This document shows, one piece after another, positions 20,588-26,217 of a stretch of DNA of 64,000 nt; positions within the stretch are counted from its first letter, which is position 1, and the number at the start of each line of letters is the position of its first letter. The notes under the pieces were generated by a model. That model was given only the letters and a program-made list of their open reading frames with translations. It was not told the origin of the DNA and did no database searches. Both the position numbers and the translations under genes were made by a program. This stretch comes from Acidimicrobiales bacterium. GTDB taxonomy: Bacteria; Actinomycetota; Acidimicrobiia; Acidimicrobiales; Aldehydirespiratoraceae. The stretch spans positions 310,001 through 374,000 of the forward strand of contig JAWPML010000001.1 in assembly GCA_033344915.1 (NCBI GenBank). Reading direction: 5' to 3'.

Positions 20588-20595
20588 CGGCGGAC

Positions 20596-21369
20596 ATGGA
20601 CGACGTGCTGCACTCCGAGGTTGCTGACGAGGTCGCGCTGGTGGTGATGAACCGACCCGAGAGTCGCAACGCGCTCAACTCCCTGTTGCTGGGCGGCCTG
20701 CGGGCGACCCTCTCGTCGCTCGACGCCCGTGCGGACGTGCGCGCCATCGTTCTCACCGGCGCCGACCCGGCGTTCTGCGCCGGCCTGGACCTCAAGCAAC
20801 TCGAGGCGGGCGGCTCGATCAGCGCCGGCGTCGACGACGGTCAGCCGTTCCCGCCCGACATGTCGACGCCCGTGATCGGCGCCATCAACGGGCCGGCGGT
20901 GACCGGCGGCCTCGAGATCGCGCTCGCGTGCGACCTGCTCATCGCGTCGGAGCGGGCGTCGTTCGCCGACACCCACGCCCGGGTCGGGATCCTTCCCGGC
21001 TGGGGACTGTCGGTCGAGCTGCCGCGCGCCGTCGGCGTCCGGCGGGCCCGGCAGATGAGCTTCACGGGCAACTACGTCCACGCAGAGCAGGCGCTTCAGT
21101 GGGGGCTGGTGAACGAGGTGGTGCCGCACGAGCAGCTCCTCGAACGGGCGATGGAGCTCGGGCGCGACATGGCGACGGTCCCGGCCAAGGCGGCAGCGGC
21201 CATGAAGCGCCTGTACTGGGCGACCCACGCCGTCACCGCCGGCGACGCGCTGATCGTCGAGAAGGAGGTCAACCGGAGTTGGGCAGCGTCGGGCGGCTTC
21301 GACCCGGACGCGCTGGCGGCGAGTCGCGCGGCGATCCAGGCCCGGGGATCGGCCCAGCAGGGCGACTGA
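20596..21369 (+). CDS. Enoyl-CoA hydratase/isomerase
   Basis: A 257-residue crotonase-fold protein. LVVMNRPESRNALNSLL starts the domain, DPAFCAGLDLKQLEAGG is the first oxyanion-hole loop, and PVIGAINGPAVTGGLEIALACDLLIA holds the second. ADTHARVGILPGWGLSVELPRAVG is the usual substrate region; the catalytic glutamates of mitochondrial ECH are not clearly conserved there, so it could be an isomerase or other crotonase. It is leaderless and precedes the selenoprotein-like operon by 85 bases. Confidence 0.85.
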   Translation: MDDVLHSEVADEVALVVMNRPESRNALNSLLLGGLRATLSSLDARADVRAIVLTGADPAFCAGLDLKQLEAGGSISAGVDDGQPFPPDMSTPVIGAINGPAVTGGLEIALACDLLIASERASFADTHARVGILPGWGLSVELPRAVGVRRARQMSFTGNYVHAEQALQWGLVNEVVPHEQLLERAMELGRDMATVPAKAAAAMKRLYWATHAVTAGDALIVEKEVNRSWAASGGFDPDALAASRAAIQARGSAQQGD

Positions 21370-21394: not shown

Positions 21395-21450
21395 TTGTGG
21401 CAGTCCTTATGACAGATGTATGGTCGGGGGACGTCAACCGTCCCAGGAGG
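21395..21450 (+). promoter_or_regulatory. Promoter and strong ribosome-binding site of the selenoprotein operon
   Basis: TTGTGG at 21395-21400 and TATGGT at 21419-21424 are 18 bases apart. AGGAGG at 21445-21450 lies four bases before ATG 21455, one of the strongest Shine-Dalgarno sequences in the window. The TetR protein encoded two genes later may bind here, but no clear operator palindrome was identified. Confidence 0.5.
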
Positions 21451-21454
21451 ATCC

Positions 21455-22609
21455 ATGTCCGGCGACGCCCCGATGCGGAACTATGCCGCCACGCTTCCCG
21501 CTCCGGAGTTCTCCGAGCCCGCCTTCACGACGCCCGTGGCGCTGCAGGACGCGACGGTCGCGATCGTCACCTCGGCTGCGCTGCACCGTCCGGACGACGA
21601 GTCCTTCCACCAGACGGAGACCGACTATCGGGTCCTGCCCCGCGAGGAGCGCGGCTATGTGCTCGGTCACTGGAGTCCGAACTTCGACCGGGCCGGCTTC
21701 ACGGCCGACCTGAATGTGGTGTTCCCGATCGACCGGCTCGAAGAGCTCGCGGCGGACGGCACGATCGGCGCCGTGAGCGACATCCATCTGTCGTTCGCGG
21801 GGAATCAGGAGGAGGACGGGCTCGCGACGATCATCCACGACTCCGGGCCCCGGGCCGCCGCGGAACTCAAGGCGGCCGGCGTCGATGTCGTGCTGCTCAC
21901 CCCCGTTTGACCGCTCTGCACGCGCACCGTGTGTGTGCTCGCCCATGTCCTCGAAGCCGGCGGTCTCGCCACGGTCGCGCTCGCGTCGATGCGCCCGGTC
22001 GCCGAGAAGGTCGCCCCACCACGCGTCCTGCACGGCGAGTTCCCGCTCGGTCGTCCGCTCGGCAAGCCGGGTGACGCCGAGTTCCAACACGACGTGATCG
22101 CCCGCGCGTTCGCGCTCCTCGACGCCCCTGAGCCGGTGATCGAGAGCCACCCCGTCACCATCGAGGACACCACCGAGGCGGTTGCGTGCGCGTTGCCCCC
22201 GGCGTTCGACGGTGATGCCTCGCCCGCGGTGCTGGAAGCCAAGGGGATCCGCAAGGCCTACGACCGGATCGTGGAGCGGCGCGGTGTCACGAGTGTCGGA
22301 CGGGTCATGACCGCCGACGAGGTTCCCGCCGCGCTCGAGGTCCTCGAGGCGATCGCGGCCGGCACGAGCTTCAAGGAGGCCGGCCTGCCGGGCAAGAACT
22401 CCATCGCGACGTGTCATGACATCCGCACGTACTACGAGGAGGCGGCCGTCGAGCTGGTGGACGGACCCGTGGCCGACGGACGGGCGATCGAGTCGTGGTT
22501 CTTCGACCAGACCGAAGCCGGCAAGGTCGTGCTCGCCGCTCGCCAGGCGATGTCCGACCAGGGGGCACCGATGCCGTTCTGGTTCTACATGGCGCCGGGA
22601 CACCGGTGA
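21455..22609 (+). CDS. GrdB/PrdB-like reductase family protein with in-frame UGA, probable selenoprotein
   Basis: From ATG 21455 the frame is open for 151 codons (MSGDAPMRNYAATLPAPEFS to DVVLLTPV). It meets TGA at 21908-21910 and continues in the same frame (PLCTRTVCVLAHVLEAGG) to 22609. Read through, it is 384 residues with Sec152 in a U-x-x-C motif. The family is glycine/betaine/sarcosine/D-proline reductase selenoprotein B, whose members carry Sec or Cys at this place after a LLT/ILT strand. A hairpin directly follows the TGA. Coding quality and homology are equal on both sides. The protein may be a thiol-redox enzyme rather than an amino-acid reductase. No Sec machinery lies in the window. 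The alternative is a nonsense mutation. Confidence 0.75.
21908..21938 (+). promoter_or_regulatory. In-frame UGA and SECIS-like hairpin
   Basis: After TGA 21908-21910, bases 21918-21926 (GCACGCGCA) pair with 21930-21938 (TGTGTGTGC). The 9-bp stem includes two G-U pairs and is closed by CCG. The apical loop begins 17 bases after the UGA, within the distance range of bacterial SECIS elements. The loop has only one G and it is not in the first two positions; a shifted register (loop GCACCGTGT) would start with G. A match to the strict bacterial consensus therefore remains open. Confidence 0.5.
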
Positions 22610-23217
22610 CCGCCGACTCCCTCCCGACCGTCGACGGTCGTCGCGCTCGCCGCGACCAGAACCGCGACCGCGTCGTCGATGCGCTTCTGGATCTCTACCG
22701 CGAGGGCGACCTCGAACCGTCGGTGAACGCCGTCGCCGAGCGCTCCGGCGTCAGCCATCGTTCCGTGTTCCGCTACTTCGACGACCTCGACGAGCTGTAC
22801 CGGGTGGCCATCGAACGTCAGTACCAGACGCTGCGCGTTCACCTCCTCATCAGCGAGATCGGTCGGGGCACCCTGCTGGAGCGAATCGACCGGATCGTCG
22901 CCAATCGGCTCGACCTGTACGAGGTCGCCGCACCGGTCGCCCGCGTCGGACACATGAAGGCACCGCTCGAGCCGATCCTCCTCGACCATCTCCGCGACAA
23001 CGCCCAGGAATCGATCATTCAGGTCCGGCGACACTTCGCGGACGAGCTCGCGGCGATGACCGCCGAGCGGTCGGCGGTTGCAGCCGAGGCGATCACCCTC
23101 GTCCTGTCGATGGAGTCGATGGAGACCATGCTGTTCATCCGCGGGCTCTCCCGCGACCAGGCCGCGGCCTGCATGCGGATGACGCTGACCGGAATCCTGG
23201 GGGCGGCGGATGGCTGA
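22606..23217 (+). CDS. TetR-family transcriptional regulator
   Basis: A 203-residue regulator whose N-terminus contains RRARRDQNRDRVVDALLDLY and the helix-turn-helix AVAERSGVSHRSVFRYFDDLDELY (about residues 38-62). The C-terminal ligand domain is typical in length. GTG 22606 overlaps the stop of the selenoprotein-like gene (GTGA), so it is expressed from the same operon and may autoregulate it. It ends eight bases inside the SRPBCC gene. Confidence 0.85.
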   Translation: MTADSLPTVDGRRARRDQNRDRVVDALLDLYREGDLEPSVNAVAERSGVSHRSVFRYFDDLDELYRVAIERQYQTLRVHLLISEIGRGTLLERIDRIVANRLDLYEVAAPVARVGHMKAPLEPILLDHLRDNAQESIIQVRRHFADELAAMTAERSAVAAEAITLVLSMESMETMLFIRGLSRDQAAACMRMTLTGILGAADG

Positions 23218-23662
23218 TCGGCGCGTCGAGCAGACGACGGTGGTGCCGCCGGCTGCGGTGTGGAAGAAGCTCGCGGCGTTCGACCGGATCGCGGAGTGGT
23301 CCGCGGAGGTCGACCATTCGTCGTTCATGACGAGCCGGGAGGAGGGCATCGGGGCCGTTCGGCGAGTACAGGTCGGGCCGCTGACCCTTCGCGAGGAGAT
23401 CATCGAATGGGAGCCCGAGCAGACGCTCGCCTACGAGCTCCAGGGTCTGCCCGCCATCGTGTCGCGGGTCGTGAACTCGTGGGAGATCGCCGCCGATGGC
23501 GCCGGGAGTCGGGTCAGCCTCACGCTCGACGTCACCCCCGGCCCCAAGCCACCCATGCGTCTCGCCGCGCGAGTGCTCGCCCGCCGGATCGGTTCGACGA
23601 ACGAGAAGCTCCTGGCCGGTCTCGTGGCCGCGGTCGAGCGGGACGAAAAGGGAGCGGGATGA
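23210..23662 (+). CDS. SRPBCC (polyketide cyclase/START-like) protein
   Basis: A 150-residue helix-grip protein: VEQTTVVPPAAVWKKLAAFD at the N-terminus, central strands with TLREEIIEWEPEQTLAYEL, and a C-terminal amphipathic helix (ARRIGSTNEKLLAGLVAAVE). These proteins bind hydrophobic small molecules in a central cavity. It overlaps the TetR gene and its stop overlaps the next ATG, so it is a core operon member. The ligand is unknown. Confidence 0.8.
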   Translation: MADRRVEQTTVVPPAAVWKKLAAFDRIAEWSAEVDHSSFMTSREEGIGAVRRVQVGPLTLREEIIEWEPEQTLAYELQGLPAIVSRVVNSWEIAADGAGSRVSLTLDVTPGPKPPMRLAARVLARRIGSTNEKLLAGLVAAVERDEKGAG

Positions 23663-26217
23663 CGTCGCCAGCCCAGCCGGACATCATCGTGATCCTCACC
23701 GACGAGGAACGAGCCGCGCCGTCCTACGAGACGGATGACGTCCGTCGTTGGCGCGCCGAGGCGCTACCGGCCCGCCGGTGGTTCGACGAGAACGCCGTGT
23801 CGTTCGACCGTCATTACGTGGCCTCGACGGCGTGTGTGCCGAGCCGGCCGTGTCTGCTCACCGGGCAGTATCCGGACGTCCACGGTGTCACCCAGACCAA
23901 CGGCCTCGCGAAGCGTGACGACGACAGCCGGATGCGCTGGCTCCGCCCGGACGAGGTGCCGACGCTCGGCGACTGGATGCGGGCGGCGGGCTACGACACG
24001 CACTATGTCGGGAAGTGGCACGTGAGCCACGCCGACCTGATGGTCGACGGCCGGCCGCTCGACACCAACACCGACGACGGCGACCTGATCTCCTCGGCCG
24101 TCGATGCCTATCTCGAGGCTGATCCACTGGACGAATTCGGTTTCAGCGGATGGGTCGGACCGGAGCCGCACAGCGGGCGGAAGTCCGACATGGGCATCGT
24201 CCGTGACCCGATCTACGCCGAGCGCGCCGTTGCGTTCCTGGAGGATCGCTACGCGCGGCGCGTCGCCGGCGATGCCGATGCTGCTCGGCCGTTCCTCCTG
24301 GTCTGCTCGTTCGTCAACCCCCACGACATCGTTCTCTGGCCGATCCTCGCCCGTCGTCCGCTGCCCGAGGCGGCTGTGGCGTTGCCCGAGGTGCCGCCGT
24401 CGCCGACCGACGACGAGGACCTGTCGACCAAGCCGGCGCTGCACAGTGCGTACCGCGACGCCTACTACTCCGGGTACGGGCCGGCGCCGCTGGTCCGTCG
24501 CGCCTATGAGGCGAACGCCGAGCGGTACCGCCGGACCTACTACCGGCTGCACCACGACGTGGACGGGCCGATCGACCGGGTGCGCCGCACCGTCACGGGG
24601 GCCGGCCACGAATCGGTCGTGGTGTTCTCCTCGGACCACGGCGACATGCTCGGCAGCCATGGTGGGCTCCACCAGAAGTGGTACCAGCTCTACGACGAGG
24701 CGACCCGGGTGCCGTTCCAGATGGCCCGCGTCGGCGCCGAGCCGTCCGCGCCCGGATCGGTACCGGTTCCCACGAGCCACATCGATCTGGTGCCCACATT
24801 GCTCGGCGTGGCCGGCGCGTCCGAGGCCGAGCTGGCATCGAAGCTCGCGGAGACCCACTCGGAGGTCCATCCGCTGCCCGGTCGTGACCTGAGCGGCGTC
24901 CTGGCCGGCGGATCCGTCGCGAACGCGCCGGTCTACATGATCACGCGGGACAATGTTCTCGAGGGCGACGGCAACGCCTCGGCGATCGCCCAGCAGCGGG
25001 GGCGCCGCGAGGCGCCGTACCCCTTGCAGATCAGGATCCCGGCCCACGCAGCAACCAATGTCGAAGCCGTCGTCGACCGCGTCGACGGTCGGATGTGGAA
25101 GCTCGTGCGTACCTTCGACGACCCCGCCGGCTGGACGGATCCCTTCGTGCGGAACCTCTCCGTCCGGGGGCCGAGCGGGCCGGCGTTCCGCACGGAGCCG
25201 ATTCCCGACCAGTGGGAGCTCTACGACCTCGATGCCGATCCGGCCGAGGCCGTCAATCGAGCCGACGATCCGGCCGCGGCCGATGCGCGACACCATCTGG
25301 AGACGACGATGACCAACGCCCGAGACGCTGTCCCCGAACGCAATCGCCCGTGGCCGACCGCGGTCCGCCCGGACGACGGACCCGTGGCGAAGACGCCGCC
25401 CAAGCCGGCCCTCGCCGCTCGTCGACTCCTCCAGCGGATCGGCATGCACCCGGACGACCCGGATGCCGTGCAGCTCGACCTCACCGGGCACCGGGCGCTC
25501 GTCGTGGCGACCAACCACGGCACGCTCGGAGTCAACAAGCCGACCGGCGTCTTCGGCTCCGAGCTGACGGTGCCGTACTACGAGTTCCTCGACGCCGGGA
25601 TGGAGGTCGATGTCGCGTCACCGCGGGGCGGCGACATCCCGTTCGATCCGGCGTCGTTCAAGCCGGCGGTGCGGTCCCATCACGACGACCGCTACATGGT
25701 CGACGACGAACTCCAGCAGAAGTGCATGGACTCGATCCCGATCGACGCCGTCGACATCGAGTCCTACGACATCGTGTTCTTCGCCGGCGGCTGGGGGGCC
25801 GCGTGGGATCTCGGCACCTCCGACGAGATCGGCGAGCAGGTGACGAAGGCGGCAGCCAACGGCGCTGTGCTCGGCGGGATCTGCCACGGGCCGCTCGGCC
25901 TCCTCAAGGCGAAGGGTCCCGGCGGGGAGCCGCTCGTCAAGGGCCGTCGGATCACGGCGGTGACCGACAAGCAGGTCACCGAGCTCGGGATCTCCCACAC
26001 GCCGCAGCATCCCGAGACCGAGCTGCGCAACGCCGGGGCGAACTTCGAGTCGTCCACCCACCGGCTTCGTGACATGTTCGCCAACCATGTCGTGGTCGAC
26101 GGTGACCTCATCACCGGTCAGAACCAGAACTCGGGCCTGATGGTGTCCCGCGAGATGATGCAGCGCGTGCTCGAGAAGGCCGCGGCGAGCGCCGCCGAAC
26201 AGCCCCAGGAGGCATAG
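23659..26217 (+). CDS. Fusion of a type I sulfatase with a DJ-1/PfpI domain
   Basis: The 852-residue protein starts at an ATGA overlap. Residues 1 to about 520 form a formylglycine sulfatase: DIIVILTDEER (metal Asp15), CVPSR with Cys59 as the formylglycine site, VGKWH, and VVFSSDHGDMLGSHGG. A linker of about 90 residues follows. Residues from about 615 form a DJ-1/PfpI domain: LVVATNHGTLG, GVFGSELTVPYYEFLDAG, FFAGGWGAAWDL, and the nucleophile elbow GGICHGPLGLL with Cys742. Each domain is near full length and the frame is unbroken. It is cytoplasmic by appearance (no signal peptide). The combination is unusual; the substrate may be an organic sulfate ester or a phosphonate/choline-sulfate-like compound. 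Confidence 0.85.
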   Translation: MTSPAQPDIIVILTDEERAAPSYETDDVRRWRAEALPARRWFDENAVSFDRHYVASTACVPSRPCLLTGQYPDVHGVTQTNGLAKRDDDSRMRWLRPDEVPTLGDWMRAAGYDTHYVGKWHVSHADLMVDGRPLDTNTDDGDLISSAVDAYLEADPLDEFGFSGWVGPEPHSGRKSDMGIVRDPIYAERAVAFLEDRYARRVAGDADAARPFLLVCSFVNPHDIVLWPILARRPLPEAAVALPEVPPSPTDDEDLSTKPALHSAYRDAYYSGYGPAPLVRRAYEANAERYRRTYYRLHHDVDGPIDRVRRTVTGAGHESVVVFSSDHGDMLGSHGGLHQKWYQLYDEATRVPFQMARVGAEPSAPGSVPVPTSHIDLVPTLLGVAGASEAELASKLAETHSEVHPLPGRDLSGVLAGGSVANAPVYMITRDNVLEGDGNASAIAQQRGRREAPYPLQIRIPAHAATNVEAVVDRVDGRMWKLVRTFDDPAGWTDPFVRNLSVRGPSGPAFRTEPIPDQWELYDLDADPAEAVNRADDPAAADARHHLETTMTNARDAVPERNRPWPTAVRPDDGPVAKTPPKPALAARRLLQRIGMHPDDPDAVQLDLTGHRALVVATNHGTLGVNKPTGVFGSELTVPYYEFLDAGMEVDVASPRGGDIPFDPASFKPAVRSHHDDRYMVDDELQQKCMDSIPIDAVDIESYDIVFFAGGWGAAWDLGTSDEIGEQVTKAAANGAVLGGICHGPLGLLKAKGPGGEPLVKGRRITAVTDKQVTELGISHTPQHPETELRNAGANFESSTHRLRDMFANHVVVDGDLITGQNQNSGLMVSREMMQRVLEKAAASAAEQPQEA

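What the first reader, a model, noticed from the sequence alone, without database searches (positions are those of the whole stretch)
21455..22609. Probable selenocysteine protein of the GrdB/PrdB family
An in-frame TGA at 21908-21910 splits an otherwise continuous gene. Both halves are in the same reading frame, both match the family, and the TGA falls where Sec or Cys is expected, giving a U-x-x-C redox motif. Selenoproteins are rarely reported in this kind of aerobic actinobacterium. The role is probably not Stickland fermentation, since the other reductase subunits are absent.
Basis: partly seen in the sequence, partly recalled or inferred. Interest (0 to 1): 0.92.

Follow-up and report, generated by a model that had tools for sequence, protein, structure and literature searches.

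The report
Stand-alone PrdB-like selenoprotein in aerobic actinobacterium
This split-looking gene is a genuine, widely conserved selenium-containing enzyme of oxygen-breathing actinobacteria: its internal stop codon is read as selenocysteine, it resembles an anaerobic amino-acid-fermentation enzyme (D-proline reductase) but lacks that enzyme's partner, and its substrate is unknown.

Summary
Window 21455-22609 (+) is one 384-residue gene with an in-frame TGA at 21908-21910 (codon 152). The genome has tRNA-Sec, selA, selB and a selD that is itself a selenoprotein gene. Of 150 homologous loci, 148 keep the TGA, and both halves are under purifying selection. A 6-bp hairpin 14-30 nt after the TGA is paired in 98-100% of 114 distinct sequences, with about ten independent compensatory changes. 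Wider homologues carry Cys at the site; two orthologues carry Ala in assemblies apparently lacking Sec machinery. The N-terminal ~220 residues align end to end, Sec on Sec, with authentic D-proline reductase PrdB; the C-terminal ~150 residues are an extra helical domain without a recognised relative. The pyruvoyl partner family (PF09338, which detects PrdA) is absent here and from all 55 class genomes with close orthologues. So it is not a proline or glycine reductase but most likely a stand-alone selenol/thiol redox enzyme of unknown substrate. PrdB-type selenoproteins were already known to be abundant in surface-ocean metagenomes, so this is a two-domain variant of a known selenoprotein family.

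The parts
21446..21451 (+). Shine-Dalgarno sequence AGGAGG
   Evidence: read directly
21455..22609 (+). PrdB-like two-domain selenoprotein gene, 384 residues, read through an internal TGA
21908..21910 (+). TGA codon decoded as selenocysteine (residue 152), U-P-L-C motif with Cys155
   Evidence: 148/150 loci TGA; Cys in wider homologues; aligned with Sec of authentic PrdB
21922..21938 (+). SECIS-type hairpin GCGCAC-CGTGT-GTGTGC (6 bp, 5-nt loop CGUGN)
   Evidence: paired in 98-100% of 114 distinct sequences, loop CGTGN in nearly all; ~10 independent compensatory changes on the tree; fold
21533..22129 (+). PrdB-like alpha/beta domain (about residues 27-225)
   Evidence: TIGR04483 match residues 27-219 over profile 24-215/238; model pLDDT 92; alignment with PrdB
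22130..22606 (+). C-terminal helical domain (residues 226-384), absent from PrdB
   Evidence: alone: mean pLDDT 90.4, all helical; no significant PDB match found; no Pfam family
22606..23217 (+). TetR-type regulator, start GTG overlaps the stop of the selenoprotein gene (GTGA)
   Evidence: weak TetR_N match, just below the Pfam cut-off
23210..23662 (+). Polyketide-cyclase/SRPBCC-like protein, overlaps the previous gene
23659..26217 (+). Sulfatase (C-x-P-S-R) fused to DJ-1/PfpI domain, overlaps the previous gene
20590..21369 (+). Enoyl-CoA hydratase upstream, same strand
   Evidence: recurs directly upstream in several relatives

Best explanation
The gene encodes a genuine selenoprotein. UGA152 is decoded as selenocysteine by SelB/tRNA-Sec with the hairpin immediately downstream (decoding inferred from very strong comparative evidence, not shown biochemically). 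The product is a two-domain enzyme: a PrdB-like Rossmann-type alpha/beta domain with Sec at the N-terminus of a helix that follows a beta strand (U-P-L-C), plus a helical C-terminal domain peculiar to this clade. It works without the pyruvoyl subunit (PrdA/GrdE) of proline and glycine reductases, so it does not activate amines through that group. Most likely (inference) the selenolate attacks an electrophilic substrate, the product is released, a Se-S bond forms with Cys155, and a low-molecular-weight thiol or thioredoxin regenerates the enzyme. The substrate is unknown; the acyl-CoA and sulfatase neighbours of this and related loci point to catabolism of organic compounds, and the helical domain may shape the substrate site or replace the missing partner.
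For: Sec machinery: tRNA-Sec, selA and selB adjacent, selD with its own Sec codon in GUGCK. TGA retained in 148/150 loci across 46-100% identity. Cys at the site in 7 of 21 wider homologues read and Sec in authentic PrdB next to prdA. Hairpin with compensatory changes: pair 17-27 is C-G in 67 and U-A in 46 of 114, 11 changes on the left and 10 on the right of the tree; Arg CGT goes with Thr ACG (45), Arg CGC with Val/Ala (67), one exception. PrdB-like genes and selA co-occur (107 of 120, Fisher p 5e-12, not corrected for kinship). PF09338 recognises PrdA, is absent here and from all 55 class genomes with close orthologues while found in 24 others. Terminal oxidases present. No partner gene conserved in most of 97 loci.
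Against: No protein-level data. Two orthologues have Ala at the site and are otherwise intact, so the protein may keep some function without Sec. Hairpin stability in the window itself is not exceptional (z -1.16); the case rests on covariation. Substrate and reaction are not shown; a structural, regulatory or peroxide-reducing role is not excluded.
Confidence: 0.72

Rival explanations
1. It is a true D-proline or glycine-type reductase subunit whose pyruvoyl partner is unrecognised; the enzyme reduces an amine in anoxic microsites.
For: End-to-end alignment of the N-terminal domain with PrdB, Sec on Sec; GRDB Pfam match above cut-off.
Against: PF09338, which detects PrdA, gives nothing in the own genome nor in any of 55 close-orthologue genomes, although the search works in the class; scores far below PrdB/GrdB equivalog cut-offs (115 vs 300 bits); separate clade; terminal oxidases present; extra C-terminal domain.
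Confidence: 0.08
2. It is mainly a thiol-redox or peroxide-detoxifying protein (thioredoxin-like use of UxxC) rather than a substrate-specific catabolic reductase.
For: UxxC motif, Sec/Cys exchange, UxxU in two homologues, aerobic host.
Against: The structural matches found are Rossmann-like, none thioredoxin-like (weak evidence); many other invariant residues outside the motif (H72, S74, F77, D78, H111, R190, G199-R200-P201) suggest a specific substrate site.
Confidence: 0.22
3. The TGA is a real stop: a pseudogene, a sequencing error or two separate genes.
For: The second half has its own GTG at 21929.
Against: Same TGA in 148 of 150 loci, purifying selection on both sides, covarying hairpin, Sec machinery present, continuous Cys version in L178.
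Confidence: 0.01

Closest known systems
D-proline reductase subunit PrdB (TIGR04483; Terrisporobacter, Enterococcus, Acetoanaerobium)
   Same: N-terminal ~200 residues colinear at about 32% identity; Sec in the same column; U-x-x-C motif
   Different: 384 vs 241 residues (helical C-terminal domain); UPLC instead of UGTC; no FMGGGG segment; no PrdA and no prd operon; own clade; aerobic host
Glycine/sarcosine/betaine reductase selenoprotein B (GrdB, PF07355, TIGR01918)
   Same: Matches the C-terminal half of GrdB, which holds its Sec
   Different: Lacks the N-terminal half; no GrdE/PF09338 partner; below curated NCBIfam cut-offs
Marine 'PrdB' UxxC selenoproteins of the Sargasso Sea and Global Ocean Sampling surveys (PMC1088965: 42; PMC2398784: 235)
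   Same: Same family label and motif, surface-ocean habitat; this gene plausibly belongs to what those surveys counted
   Different: Those sequences were not compared here; host, missing partner and C-terminal domain are not described in the passages read
'Glycine/sarcosine/betaine reductase selenoprotein B family protein' of Alphaproteobacteria (Haematobacter, Roseomonas plasmids)
   Same: Stand-alone PrdB-like gene without prdA nearby
   Different: Cys instead of Sec (NCPxC), about 300 residues, distant clade
GrdB-like FarB of Cloacibacillus (monofluoroacetate dehalorespiration, PMC10838667)
   Same: GrdB relative proposed to use Sec as nucleophile on a polar C-X bond
   Different: Anaerobe, with a GrdE-like partner (FarE)

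Membership tests
Bacterial selenoprotein | Sec machinery (tRNA-Sec, SelA, SelB, SelD) in the genome | tested here: met
Bacterial selenoprotein | In-frame TGA conserved, with Cys or Sec in homologues | tested here: met
   148/150 TGA; Cys in wider homologues; 2/150 Ala
Bacterial selenoprotein | SECIS hairpin just downstream of the TGA | tested here: met
   6-bp stem 14-30 nt after the T of TGA, loop CGUGN, compensatory changes
Bacterial selenoprotein | Selenium in the full-length product | not testable with these tools
   needs labelling or mass spectrometry
D-proline reductase PrdB | Colinear PrdB domain with Sec at the PrdB position | tested here: met
D-proline reductase PrdB | Score over the equivalog cut-off (TIGR04483, 300 bits) | tested here: not met
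   115 bits
D-proline reductase PrdB | Pyruvoyl partner PrdA encoded in the genome | tested here: not met
   PF09338 detects PrdA but is not found in the own genome; the search rings elsewhere in class and phylum
D-proline reductase PrdB | prd operon context (prdA, prdC, prdD, proline racemase) | tested here: not met
   neighbours are enoyl-CoA hydratase, TetR, SRPBCC, sulfatase; compare
Glycine/sarcosine/betaine reductase component B (GrdB) | Pfam GRDB domain | tested here: met
   29.2 bits vs cut-off 22, partial (profile 201-345/347)
Glycine/sarcosine/betaine reductase component B (GrdB) | Full-length GrdB and GrdE partner | tested here: not met
   N-terminal half of GrdB missing; no PF09338
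Glycine/sarcosine/betaine reductase component B (GrdB) | GrdA selenoprotein partner | not tested
   no search with PF04723 was made

The most novel reading that the evidence does not exclude
A previously undescribed class of single-subunit, pyruvoyl-independent selenoenzymes in aerobic bacteria, in which the helical C-terminal domain replaces the PrdA/GrdE partner and which reductively cleaves a bond in an environmental organic compound under aerobic conditions, giving one reason why so many Acidimicrobiia keep the selenocysteine machinery.
Probability: 0.25. Interest if true: 0.75.

Novelty: new variant of a known kind. Interest (0 to 1): 0.5.

Why it matters
A family named after anaerobic Stickland fermentation has an orphan, two-domain, partner-less branch in oxygen-respiring Acidimicrobiia (120 of 395 genomes of the class have a family member; 55 have a close long-form orthologue). 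Ordinary annotation would report two fragments. It makes testable what a PrdB-like selenol does without a pyruvoyl group, and what the abundant 'PrdB' selenoproteins of the surface ocean are for. The SECIS case is also instructive: the RNA stem ties a protein residue (Thr versus Val/Ala) to a synonymous Arg codon.

Tried and rejected
Pseudogene, sequencing error or two genes: rejected. D-proline or glycine reductase: rejected as a family assignment. Conserved operon partner: 97 loci compared, no family adjoins in most of them; acyl-CoA synthetase (31 loci), enoyl-CoA hydratase (24), acyl-CoA dehydrogenase-like (21) and the sulfatase/DJ-1 gene (15) recur at varying positions. Solved-structure relatives: profile search gives nothing under E 0.9; Foldseek none under 0.001 for the whole model or the C-terminal domain; VIA-align gives only generic Rossmann matches, Z up to 7.5, and Z up to 3.9 for the C-terminal domain; viral library nothing of significance. 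Not in viral contigs at close range nor in phage records. Single-sequence hairpin energy is not decisive (z -1.16; mean z -1.4 against synonymous recoding). Papers: no report found that couples Acidimicrobiia or Ilumatobacter with this selenoprotein.

Full report
What is there. Window 21455-22609 (+) is a single frame of 384 codons interrupted by one TGA at 21908-21910, codon 152. The start is supported by an AGGAGG just upstream and by conservation of the N-terminus MSGD in orthologues. The frame ends in TGA at 22607-22609, overlapping the GTG of a TetR-type gene.

The genome can make selenoproteins. The window lies in a single-contig genome of 4.48 Mb. It contains a tRNA-Sec over the Rfam cut-off, confirmed by ARAGORN with anticodon TCA, adjacent selB and selA over their cut-offs, and selD over its cut-off with one in-frame TGA, which falls in the active-site motif GUGCK. 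The genome also has three COX1-type terminal oxidase hits, so the host can be expected to respire oxygen.

The TGA is conserved. A read-through search of 395 genomes of the class finds homologues in 120; nearly all have exactly one in-frame TGA. At the aligned codon, 148 of 150 loci (116 distinct sequences) have TGA and two have Ala codons. Differences from four relatives are concentrated in third positions on both sides of the TGA. In the wider family, 7 of 21 homologues read have Cys at the site, among them the full-length orthologue L178, and two have a second TGA at the position of the motif's Cys, giving U-P-I-U. selA is found in 259 of 395 genomes and in 107 of the 120 that have a PrdB-like gene (Fisher p 5e-12, not corrected for kinship); most of the other 13 are incomplete assemblies. 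The two Ala orthologues come from assemblies (80% and 64% complete) without selA and without a tRNA-Sec over the cut-off.

A SECIS-type hairpin is under selection. Counting from the T of the TGA as 0, positions 14-19 pair with 25-30 around a five-base loop CGTGN. In 114 distinct sequences the six pairs are standard in 98-100%. At pair 17-27 the type is C-G in 67 and T-A in 46 sequences with one exception. On a protein tree this pair changes 11 times, 11 on the left and 10 on the right, so about ten compensatory double changes occurred. The left base is the synonymous third base of an Arg codon; the right base is the first base of the codon four further on: CGT goes with Thr ACG (45 cases), CGC with Val or Ala (67), one mismatch among these. 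This is hard to explain except by an RNA constraint. The two Ala orthologues and the Cys orthologue L178 do not keep the paired sequence. Folding energy of the window sequence alone is unremarkable.

What the protein is. NCBIfam PrdB (TIGR04483) matches residues 27-219 over nearly its whole profile, but at 115 bits against a cut-off of 300; Pfam GRDB is over its cut-off but partial. Aligned with authentic PrdB proteins, one of them encoded beside prdA and prdC on a Terrisporobacter plasmid, the N-terminal domain is colinear and the Sec residues fall in one column. The long form is a well supported separate clade (100/99), as is canonical PrdB (100/100). Residues 226-384 are an extra domain. 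AlphaFold gives 92.3 mean pLDDT for the whole and 90.4 for the C-terminal domain alone, which is all helical. Sec152 lies between strand 145-149 and helix 153-168, a usual place for a reactive selenol or thiol (general knowledge). No solved structure is a convincing match.

Why it is not a proline or glycine reductase. Those enzymes need a pyruvoyl subunit (established knowledge). The Pfam family PF09338 recognises PrdA. It is not found in the own genome, while the same search finds it in 15 of 396 genomes of the phylum and 24 of 395 of the class. None of the 55 class genomes with close long-form orthologues (E below 1e-90) is among those 24. The neighbourhood is enoyl-CoA hydratase, TetR, SRPBCC, sulfatase/DJ-1 fusion and metallo-beta-lactamase-fold genes, partly kept in close relatives but not across 97 loci. 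The protein therefore appears to work without a fixed partner.

Mechanism. Shown by comparison: Sec decoding, Sec/Cys exchangeability, independence from PF09338 proteins. Inferred: selenolate chemistry at U152 with Cys155 as resolving thiol, reduction by a cellular thiol, and a substrate-specific site made of invariant residues H72, S74, F77, D78, H111, R190 and G199-R200-P201. Sec attack on a polar C-X bond has a proposed precedent in the GrdB-like FarB (PMC10838667). A generic redox or peroxide role remains possible.

What was known. PrdB-type UxxC selenoproteins were reported as 42 genes in the Sargasso Sea (PMC1088965) and 235 in Global Ocean Sampling data (PMC2398784), and Sec use in aerobes is accepted (PMC5029168). 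What I did not find described is the two-domain, partner-less form in Acidimicrobiia. I therefore call it a new variant of a known kind.

Noticed in passing
L197 and L198 (two genomes of the same phylum; short PrdB-like genes): Both the Sec codon and the codon of the motif's second Cys are TGA (U-P-I-U), a possible diselenol motif in a PrdB-like protein.
   Followed up: partly
L071 and L072: Full-length orthologues with Ala at the Sec position and no hairpin, in assemblies lacking selA and a tRNA-Sec over the cut-off: apparent loss of Sec without replacement by Cys.
   Followed up: partly
L019 (own genome C1:1225971-1226897, minus strand): selD carries its own in-frame TGA (HGAGUGCKL), a second selenoprotein gene of this genome.
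   Followed up: partly
window 23659-26217: Sulfatase with the C-x-P-S-R motif fused to a DJ-1/PfpI domain, in a chain of overlapping genes that starts with the selenoprotein gene; the family recurs near the orthologue in 15 of 97 loci.
   Followed up: partly
class-wide search: 24 of 395 genomes of the class encode the GrdE/PrdA family (PF09338), so genuine glycine-reductase-type systems may occur in other Acidimicrobiia.
   Followed up: no
window 21935-21937 (codon 161) with Arg codon 157 at 21923-21925: Across orthologues the amino acid at this site (Thr or Val/Ala) follows the synonymous choice of the Arg codon four codons earlier, because both lie in the hairpin stem: RNA structure constraining protein sequence.
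   Followed up: yes
L217 7854-8780 and L218 7698-8606 (Haematobacter and Roseomonas plasmids): Alphaproteobacteria carry stand-alone Cys forms (NCPxC) of the PrdB-like family; the Roseomonas copy is next to a gene annotated selO.
   Followed up: no
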